Assembly: GCA_021030905.1 (NCBI GenBank)
Contig: JAGFMI010000030.1
Span: 62,001-126,000 of the forward strand
Source: Pyrenula massariospora
Lineage: Eukaryota; Ascomycota; Eurotiomycetes; Pyrenulales; Pyrenulaceae
Length of the DNA: 64,000 nt
Direction: 5' to 3'
Shown: positions 42,867 through 45,350 of the stretch, in pieces
Layout of the letters: every line of letters begins with the position of its first letter
Position numbering within the stretch: the first letter of the stretch is position 1
Translations under genes and position numbers: made by a program
Notes under the pieces: generated by a model
Seen by the model: only the letters and a program-made list of their open reading frames with translations
Told to the model about the DNA's origin: nothing
The model's database searches: none

Positions 42867-45350
42867 ATGGAAGACCCGAAAACAAATATCAGCGCGATAT
42901 TTGCGCCAAACTTGCCAGATGGTCTGGCTCCCGATGTCCTCGGAGAGCTGGAGTCAATGTTGCGTCTACACTCCATCTCTCCCACGGAGCTGTTTTACAA
43001 ATGGGAATCTTACAACTTCAAAATGGGTCCGGACGAGACCAGGCTAGATCTCGATACCATTCGAATGTTCAAGAGAGATATCCAAGAGGCCACGGAGAGG
43101 GAGAGCCGGAGCAAAAATGCAACCAAGACCGCCGAGAAACGCACGCAGCCGACTCCTCGAAATGCGACGAATGGAAATGTCTTCGGAATGTAAGTCCTGA
43201 GACCTTTCACCATAGAAACCCTGGTGGACTCATTAACATCAGGTTGGATGAATTCGTACCGAACACGCCTCTACCACGAACAAGAAACCCAGTAAACGGA
43301 TCAGGTACGAAACGAAAAGGCACCTTTGACACACCTGCCATCGCAAAGATAAGCCGTTCAGAGGCAAATGGAAGCCCTGCGAGTTTTAAAACTCCTCATA
43401 AGTCAGCCAATAGCTCAACAGGAGCCCCCCAGTAGGTTGAATACGTCGAATGACTAGTTTCCAAGCTAAACGTATCTCAGGGGGATACCATTCTCTGAGC
43501 GTCTTAATGCTGGCCAGGTTTTAGAAACCCTCAACGACCATTTACCTGCTGCGGAAGCGCCAATCGTGCCGTTTGCTGAGCCCCGAATCAGAATTGTTGC
43601 CAACACGGACCTGAAGAAGTTCTCGTATCGACCGATGGCGATGCGGCAATCTGAATCATCAGAGGTGCTTGATGAACGTATCGATGAGTACATGTCCATG
43701 GTTCAAAAGGCGCACAAGCTTGAAGACTCAGCATTCGGAAACCCAGCAGCACAGAGCGCTAGTGAGATTGTGGCCGTGGGCCGCATCGCCTGCGATACTC
43801 CAGACAGTAAACTAAGTACCGCTTCGCTTATGTTGGAAATCTCGCGACGAATGGGTGCCGGTATTCGTGTGCCCCTGAAGGTCACTTCTCTACCAGCTTA
43901 CCATCTCTTCCCCGGCCAAACAATCGCCGTCAAAGGTACCAATGCCGCCGGTGACCATTTTGCCGTCTCGGAGATTCTCGATGTACCATTACTGCCCTCT
44001 GCCACTTCGAAACCGGAAGTTATAGTGGGTATCAATACTAGGCTCGATGTTGATGAGGATGGTTCCATCTCGCAACCTCTCAATTACCTCATAGCATCAG
44101 GCCCCTATACCGCGGATGACAACCTTAACTTTGAACCCCTGAAAGCAATTTGCCAAAAAGCAGAGGAACTTTCAACAGACACTCTAATACTCACAGGCCC
44201 ATTTCTGGACACTGAACACCCTCTGCTCTCTTCTGGTGATTTCGATCTCCCCGAGATGAAATCGGTTGACCCGTCATCCGCCACGATGGCCACCCTCTTC
44301 CGCCTCTGGATATCTCGCCCGCTCCAAGCTCTTGCCTCCGCCGTTCCGAGCATAACCATCCTCCTTATCCCATCTGTACGAGATGTCCTCAACCGGCATG
44401 TCTCCTGGCCACAGGACCTGCTCAAACCCAGACAAGAACTTGGCCTCCCCAAACAAGCCCGTCTAGTCAGTAATCCAATCACTTTGTCACTGAATGAGAC
44501 CATCCTCGGCATATCGGCGCAAGATACCCTCTATGAATTGCGGCAAGAAGAGTTGGTCTGCGGGAAGACTCCGGATCTGCTAGCAAGACTACCGAGGTAT
44601 ATGATCGAGCAGAGACACTTTCTCCCACTCTTTCCGCCGAGCAGTCGAGAAAGGCTGCCGAAACCGGGTGGAGAAGATGGGCGTTTAGCAACTGGTGCTT
44701 CGTTGGATCTTGGTTACATGAAGCTTGGCGAGTTCGTCAGTGTTCGACCAGATGTCTTGATCACGCCCAGCGCTTTGCCACCATTTGTAAAGGTACGTTA
44801 TTGAACGCTCCCTCATTCCCGCAGCTTTATCATAGAAAACTGTGTTTTTTAGTCTTGATATTCTGCATTTGTTCTGGTAGCAAATACATACGACCATAGG
44901 GTGTGGAGAACAGTGCTTCCCGTTCGCTCAGCCGTACTTAAGCCACACGCCGGCAGGTTAGTAGTTGGGTGGGTGACCACCAGCGAATACCTGCTGTTGT
45001 ATGTTTTGCTTTTCGATATTGTTTTTAATTCATGGAAGATTTGTACATAATTTCTTAGTTCGATACGAACCTTGCAGTCTCAATTTTCTAGTTAAAGACC
45101 TGAAGGTTGTGCATTACTTTCCGTCGTGTTCCCCGCAAGTATTTTATCGTTGCAGTCTCACTAATGAGGTGCACAGGTCGTCGAGTCAGTCCTTGTGATC
45201 AATCCGGGGACGCTGTCAAAACGAAGAGCTGCAGGAACATTCGCTCAGATTGCTCTACAGCCCAGAACTCTAATGGAAGAGGAAAAGACAAAATCGAGCG
45301 TTGGACACAAAGTATTTGAGAGGGCACGAGTGGACATCATAAGGATCTGA
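42867..45350 (+). CDS. pol12: DNA polymerase alpha subunit B (Pol12)
   Basis: The regulatory B subunit of DNA polymerase alpha-primase, tethering it at replication origins. Exons 42867-43189, 43243-43431, 43481-44792 and 45177-45350 encode 665 aa. The N-terminal helical domain reads LPPDV-like LAPDVLGELESMLRLHSISPTELFYKWESY. A disordered linker contains LDEFVPNTPLPR. The OB fold and inactive calcineurin-like phosphoesterase domain follow: MLEISRRMGAG, LILTGPFLDTEHPLL, ITILLIPSVRDVLNRH and PQDLL. The last exon supplies VVESVLVINPGTLSKRRAAGTFAQI, essential and conserved, but it is separated by a 384-nt intron, six to eight times the local norm. That intron contains a 5S rRNA gene. A simple frame reading ends the protein falsely at VKVRY. 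Confidence 0.94.
44886..45004 (+). rRNA. 5S ribosomal RNA gene nested in the last pol12 intron
   Basis: The 119-nt segment starts ACATACGACCATAGGGTGTG and contains TCAGCCGTACTTAAGCCACA, TTAGTAGTTGGGTGGGTGAC and CACCAGCGAATACCTGCTGT, ending in TTGTATGT followed by TTTT. The 5' ACATAC and 3' GTATGT ends pair to close helix I. The internal A box, intermediate element and C box region for TFIIIA/TFIIIC are in place and a T-run provides the Pol III terminator. 5S genes are dispersed singly in many filamentous ascomycetes. A few positions differ from the ascomycete consensus as I recall it (CAGTGCTTCCCGTTCG and CGGCAGG), so a divergent type or early pseudogene is possible. Confidence 0.93.

What the first reader, a model, noticed from the sequence alone, without database searches (positions are those of the whole stretch)
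44793..45176. 5S rRNA gene nested in sense orientation inside a pol12 intron
The last intron of pol12 is 384 nt while its other introns are about 50 nt, and the excess is a 119-nt 5S gene with paired ends, internal control region and T-run terminator. Pol III transcription would proceed inside a Pol II unit on the same strand. The downstream exon encodes conserved Pol12 sequence, so the intron must be spliced. Dispersed 5S genes are known in filamentous ascomycetes; a host-gene intron location could couple or interfere with expression of a replication gene.
Basis: partly seen in the sequence, partly recalled or inferred. Interest (0 to 1): 0.75.

Follow-up and report, generated by a model that had tools for sequence, protein, structure and literature searches.

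The report
5S rRNA gene inside pol12 intron
In a fungus related to the lichen genus Pyrenula, one of the five complete 5S ribosomal RNA genes found in the genome assembly sits inside an intron of a DNA-replication gene, reading the same way, and a second one sits likewise inside an intron of a chromosome-segregation gene, so two polymerases probably share the same DNA.

Summary
A full-length 5S rRNA gene (RF00001, 80.7 bits, cut-off 38) lies at 44886-45004 (+) inside the third intron (44793-45176) of pol12. The intron has consensus-like splice signals and the protein is conserved without a break across the junction, so it should be spliced.

Searching the genome adds three things. (1) Five complete 5S genes and one decayed relic were found, all dispersed (5.8S was not found, so an unassembled rDNA array is not excluded). 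(2) A second of the five lies, also in sense, in a 679-nt intron of mis12; the other three look intergenic. (3) All five have an ATAT element near -30 and T-runs just downstream, and otherwise share no flanking DNA above chance level. The pol12 copy differs from the majority sequence by one base (G29 to T, weakening helix III), and its ATAT lies 2 nt closer.

Most likely it is an ordinary dispersed Pol III 5S gene in a host intron, tolerated because it is in sense. Coupling to pol12 is untested. Two of five is suggestive but not statistically firm.

The parts
42867..45350 (+). pol12 host gene (DNA polymerase alpha subunit B), 4 exons, 665 aa
   Evidence: best relative Pyrenula ochraceoflavens, 72%
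44793..45176 (+). third intron, 384 nt, phase 0 between K608 and V609
   Evidence: GTACGT donor, CACAG acceptor, sole CTRAY at 45161; protein continuous in 12 of 12 chosen relatives
44886..45004 (+). 5S rRNA gene, 119 nt, sense to host
   Evidence: RF00001 80.7 bits against cut-off 38; 1 difference from three other copies
44858..44861 (+). ATAT at -28, candidate upstream Pol III element (the other four copies have one at -30)
44935..44982 (+). internal control region (A-box, intermediate element, C-box; limits recalled, not from a call)
   Evidence: identical to the C30, C3 and C9 copies over this stretch
44914..44914 (+). 5S position 29: T instead of G, weakens the outer pair of helix III
45004..45026 (+). 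T-runs (T4 at 45004-45007 counting the gene's last base, T4 at 45010-45013, T5 at 45022-45026), Pol III terminator-like
   Evidence: sequence
44999..45004 (+). GTATGT, donor-like hexamer formed by the 5S 3' end, inside helix I
45161..45176 (+). branch-site-like CTAAT and 3' splice site
45177..45350 (+). last pol12 exon, 57 residues and stop

Best explanation
A dispersed, Pol III-transcribed 5S rRNA gene lies in sense in the third intron of pol12 and is most likely an expressed member of a very small 5S set. TFIIIA/TFIIIC would bind the internal control region, helped by the ATAT element about 28 nt upstream. Pol III would make the 119-nt RNA and stop in the T-runs at 45004-45026. Pol II reads through the same DNA and the 384-nt intron is removed as a whole. 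The sense orientation avoids head-on collision and antisense RNA, so host and guest are tolerated together. Shown: the gene, the splice anatomy, the conserved host junction, the shared cis-elements and the second nested copy in mis12. Inferred: transcription, splicing in vivo and tolerance.
For: Covariance score twice the cut-off. 118/119 identity to the C30, C3 and C9 copies. The five copies share no flanking sequence above chance level: blastn of 1.5-kb flanks gave three pieces of 19-28 nt, E 0.065 to 0.79, one of them between the two flanks of the same locus. ATAT at -30 in the four other copies; a 4-column run identical in these four was reached in 5 of 100,000 random shifts. In pol12 it is at -28; ATAT starting anywhere from -32 to -26 occurs in 183 of 9135 sampled 60-mers of the window. 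T-runs of four or more within 22 nt downstream in five of five copies. The C27 copy differs at positions 17 and 62, a U-A to C-G change in a pair that the fold also draws, which suggests selection on the RNA fold in this family. Pol12 is continuous across the junction in 12 of 12 chosen relatives. A second sense case exists: the C30 copy inside mis12 intron 5121-4443 of L022. Joining its exons gives one Mis12 match of 237.9 bits over profile 1-229/231, against 138.4 and 62.5 for the separate exons.
Against: No RNA data. Position 29 is T only in this copy. In the mis12 copy G29 pairs with C (82.5 bits); in pol12 the model must bulge that C and use a U-G pair instead (80.7 bits). The predicted single-copy fold is slightly weaker (-45.4 against -46.7 and -48.2 kcal/mol for the two other copies folded; these free folds do not draw helix III as Rfam does). 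The upstream ATAT is displaced by 2 nt; with pol12 included, the longest run of columns identical in all five upstream regions is only 2 (reached by 1317 of 200,000 shifts). So a recently relaxed or weakly active copy is not excluded.
Confidence: 0.78

Rival explanations
1. The pol12 copy is a young 5S pseudogene: a recent insertion that is no longer, or only weakly, transcribed and is on its way to decay like the C2 relic.
For: Private T29 that weakens helix III and shifted upstream ATAT; a decayed relic exists elsewhere (C2, 77% over positions 33-120; below the Rfam cut-off), so copies do die in this genome.
Against: One change in 119; internal control region, helix I and T-runs intact. The score of 80.7 bits is close to 82.5-82.8 for the others.
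Confidence: 0.15
2. The 5S acts as an RNA element of the pol12 pre-mRNA: folded in the transcript it binds a 5S-binding protein or steers splicing (a poison-exon switch like plant P5SM in TFIIIA).
For: It is in sense; the intron holds TAG at 44850-44852, a possible acceptor closing a 60-nt intron, and GTATGT at 44999, a possible donor, which would make a 5S cassette exon whose second codon in frame is a stop (my reading). In the pol12 intron context helix I is predicted to form (pair probabilities 0.92-1.0).
Against: It is a near-perfect copy of the genomic 5S, not a mimic; the host is not TFIIIA; no CTRAY branch motif lies before 44850 (the sole one is at 45161); in the mis12 context helix I is not predicted to form (0.04); the whole-intron fold is not unusual (z -1.13, 15 of 100 shuffles fold as well).
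Confidence: 0.04
3. 5S RNA is released from the spliced intron itself (Pol II-made, trimmed by exonucleases like intronic snoRNAs; the snoRNA parallel is recalled).
For: Sense orientation in two of two nested copies.
Against: All five copies keep similar Pol III signals, including the three that appear intergenic.
Confidence: 0.03

Closest known systems
Dispersed 5S rRNA genes of ascomycetes (Yarrowia lipolytica 116 copies, Blastobotrys LS3 30, Trichomonascus 36; Neurospora and Aspergillus from recall)
   Same: Single 5S genes scattered through the genome (passages seen in PMC13130702 and PMC4022394)
   Different: Here only five complete copies were found, and two of them sit in introns of protein genes, in sense
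tRNA-5S tandem and fused genes of Yarrowia and Trichomonascus
   Same: A 5S gene sharing another gene's transcription unit (passages in PMC13130702)
   Different: There the partner is a Pol III tRNA gene; here it is a Pol II protein gene with splicing
MIR (Pol III) nested in the Polr3e intron of mammals
   Same: A Pol III unit inside a Pol II intron (PMC5358760, section 6 read and passages)
   Different: Antisense there, with a 20-30% effect in a reporter; the sense construct gave no measurable effect. Ours is sense and a 5S gene
P5SM of plant TFIIIA
   Same: 5S-like RNA within a protein gene (passages in review PMC10753412; splicing role from recall)
   Different: P5SM is a structural mimic in TFIIIA; ours is a 118/119 match to other genomic 5S copies, in pol12

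Membership tests
5S rRNA gene (RF00001) | covariance score over the gathering cut-off, full length | tested here: met
   80.7 bits against 38, model 1-120
5S rRNA gene (RF00001) | internal control region intact | tested here: met
   no difference from the C30, C3 and C9 copies apart from position 29; element limits recalled
5S rRNA gene (RF00001) | helices as in the genome's other copies | tested here: inconclusive
   outer pair of helix III changed from G-C to U-G with a bulged C in the model alignment, or U/C mismatch; only the mis12 copy's alignment was printed for comparison
5S rRNA gene (RF00001) | Pol III T-run terminator | tested here: met
   T4/T4/T5 within 22 nt of the end
5S rRNA gene (RF00001) | upstream TATA-like element of this genome's 5S set | tested here: inconclusive
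   ATAT present but at -28, not -30
5S rRNA gene (RF00001) | transcribed by Pol III and found in ribosomes | not testable with these tools
   no RNA or ChIP data held
nested gene in a spliceosomal intron | real intron around it, conserved host product across the junction | tested here: met
nested gene in a spliceosomal intron | splicing observed | not testable with these tools
   no RNA-seq held
P5SM-like 5S mimic | host is TFIIIA | tested here: not met
   host is DNA polymerase alpha subunit B
P5SM-like 5S mimic | alternatively spliced exon | not testable with these tools
   candidate edges exist in the sequence only

The most novel reading that the evidence does not exclude
The nested 5S genes are a wired arrangement rather than tolerated guests: a fungus with perhaps only five 5S genes keeps two of them, in sense, in introns of a replication gene (pol12) and a kinetochore gene (mis12), so that Pol III activity (growth) and production of S-phase and M-phase proteins influence each other at the same DNA, by Pol II/Pol III interference or by 5S-protein binding to the pre-mRNA.
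Probability: 0.06. Interest if true: 0.85.

Novelty: new variant of a known kind. Interest (0 to 1): 0.45.

Why it matters
Dispersed 5S genes and intronic Pol III units are both known, but I found no printed case of an intact 5S gene within a spliced protein-gene intron in the held library (searches; listings mostly, passages of eight papers; the library lacks most subscription papers, where classic fungal 5S work would be). With so few 5S genes found, up to two fifths of the assembled 5S complement lies inside Pol II introns of cell-cycle genes. That makes a natural test of whether same-strand Pol III and Pol II units interfere, and T29 serves as a ready-made tag to see whether the intronic copy reaches ribosomes.

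Tried and rejected
Target-site duplication: an exact 11-nt direct repeat (TTGCAGTCTCA, 45072 and 45150) lies in the intron, but both copies are downstream of the 5S, and 32 of 1273 sampled 384-nt stretches of the window have such a repeat, so I do not call it an insertion scar. Mobile flank: neither the 171 nt downstream of the pol12 5S nor the 475 nt downstream of the mis12 5S gave another match in the genome; the upstream flanks were compared among the five loci but not searched genome-wide. Structural masking of the 5S-borne donor GTATGT in helix I: predicted in the pol12 context, not in mis12, so dropped as a general explanation. Preference for introns: two sense-intronic copies of five is unlikely only if introns are a small share of insertable DNA (P 0.004-0.11 for shares 0.02-0.12), and given that one copy had drawn attention, the chance of another among the remaining four is 0.08-0.40 (the shares are my assumption). 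tRNA genes in the window: none found. Relatives' DNA: a scan of viral contigs with the closest relative's Pol12 gave no relative; metagenome contigs are capped at 0, and genome contigs (bacteria and archaea) was not scanned. rDNA: 5.8S was not found in the assembly (39 of 1309 first-look candidates scored), so 5S copies in an unassembled rDNA array cannot be excluded; the 18S check did not complete.

Full report
What is there. The window belongs to a 37.8-Mb fungal assembly in 33 contigs. Its Pol12 is 72% identical to that of Pyrenula ochraceoflavens, and its Mis12 is 74% identical to the same species, with a second Pyrenula (63%) and Endocarpon (60%) next. It is therefore a Pyrenula-like ascomycete, probably lichen-forming (inference); the species is not established. 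cmscan finds one RNA family match in the window, 5S rRNA at 44886-45005 on the plus strand with 80.7 bits. The gene proper is 119 nt.

Host gene. Four exons give a 665-aa Pol12 with introns of 53, 49 and 384 nt and both Pfam domains of DNA polymerase alpha subunit B. In an alignment with 12 relatives, chosen from the 120 listed of 1338 hits, the sequence runs without a gap across the K608|V609 junction, and many residues of the last exon are invariant. The intron cannot be read through in any frame. The only CTRAY motif in the 384 nt is CTAAT at 45161, with its A 12 nt before the last intron base. Splicing of this interval is therefore required for a normal protein, although no RNA data are at hand.

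The rest of the genome. The Rfam search of the genome (47 of 1812 first-look candidates scored), a DNA search and two pattern searches with up to 3 mismatches agree on five complete 5S genes (C23 = this one, C30, C3, C9, C27); the DNA and pattern searches add one decayed copy on C2, which does not reach the Rfam cut-off. The tool states that its counts are lower bounds. 5.8S rRNA was not found and the 18S check did not complete, so 5S copies in an unassembled rDNA array remain possible.

A second nested copy. The C30 copy lies between two pieces of a Mis12 gene on the same strand. Joining the exons across a 679-nt intron (L022 5121-4443; 84 nt from donor to 5S) gives one open frame, a single Mis12 match of 237.9 bits and an alignment to 9 chosen relatives that has no gap at RHYE|NLP. 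The other three copies appear intergenic on the basis of nearby ORFs; over the five loci I tested 20 ORFs against Pfam (sequences). C9 lies beyond the 3' end of an MFS gene on the other strand. C27 lies between an enoyl-CoA hydratase ORF pointing away and an ORF without a Pfam match on the other side. C3 lies among ORFs of which the near ones have no Pfam match, the nearest of at least 110 aa starting 47 nt away. Introns, including those in untranslated regions, are not strictly excluded for these three.

Is it a working 5S gene? C30, C3 and C9 are identical over 119 nt. C27 differs at 17 and 62, which pair with each other in helix II. The pol12 copy differs from the majority only at 29 (T for G). 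In the Rfam alignment of the mis12 copy G29 pairs with C; in the pol12 copy the model bulges that C and uses U-G, a cost of 1.8 bits. Beyond the gene, blastn of 1.5-kb flanks finds three chance-level pieces of 19-28 nt. Yet the four other copies share ATAT at -30 (5 of 100,000 random shifts reach such a run); the pol12 copy has it at -28. When pol12 is included at fixed register the longest identical run is only 2 columns (1317 of 200,000 shifts). T-runs follow the gene in five of five. I conclude that the pol12 copy probably works, with T29 and the 2-nt shift as the two marks against it.

The excess length. Taking out the 5S leaves 265 nt in pol12 and 560 nt in mis12, and the parts downstream of the 5S gave no other match in the genome. 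So either the insertions carried flanking DNA, or the introns were or became long for other reasons. No clear insertion scar was found.

How it probably works. Pol III reads the 5S from its internal promoter and stops in the T-runs; Pol II reads through and the intron is spliced out. In a mammalian reporter a Pol III MIR element in an intron lowered expression by 20-30% in antisense but had no measurable effect in sense (PMC5358760, section 6 read). That fits tolerance of the sense arrangement here. Both nested 5S copies are in sense, but n is two, and the odds of chance are not small.

Literature. I saw passages of PMC13130702, PMC4022394, PMC5014426, PMC2911113, PMC10085805, PMC10753412 and PMC12294053, and passages and one section of PMC5358760. 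None describes a 5S gene in a protein-gene intron in the passages I saw (12 of 19 places shown for PMC10085805). Ten searches listed no such title among the rows shown; several lists were cut short, the other listed papers were not opened, and most subscription papers are not in the library. So 'not in print' is only a weak statement.

Verdict. It is best filed as dispersed 5S genes in an unusual, tolerated position. Regulatory coupling is an open and testable idea without evidence yet.

Noticed in passing
L022:4443-5121 (G000:C30:1260342-1261020, minus strand): A second complete 5S gene in sense within a 679-nt intron of the kinetochore gene mis12.
   Followed up: yes
G000:C2:1123925-1124025 (L006, L023): Decayed 5S relic, 77% identical over positions 33-120, with small internal insertions.
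   Followed up: partly
L019:4969-5088: The C27 5S copy carries a compensating pair change (U17-A62 to C17-G62) in helix II.
   Followed up: partly
L019:306-819: RNase MRP RNA gene (90.7 bits) about 4 kb from the C27 5S gene, same strand.
   Followed up: no
P0001, alignment columns 118-133: The public Pol12 of Pyrenula ochraceoflavens has a 16-residue insert at the place of our first intron, possibly an annotation that retains intron sequence.
   Followed up: no
G000 C25:11619-23722 and C26:4761-12316: Dense tRNA clusters on two contigs, probably mitochondrial; the six C26 tRNAs are placed as three mirror-image pairs, as in an inverted duplication.
   Followed up: no
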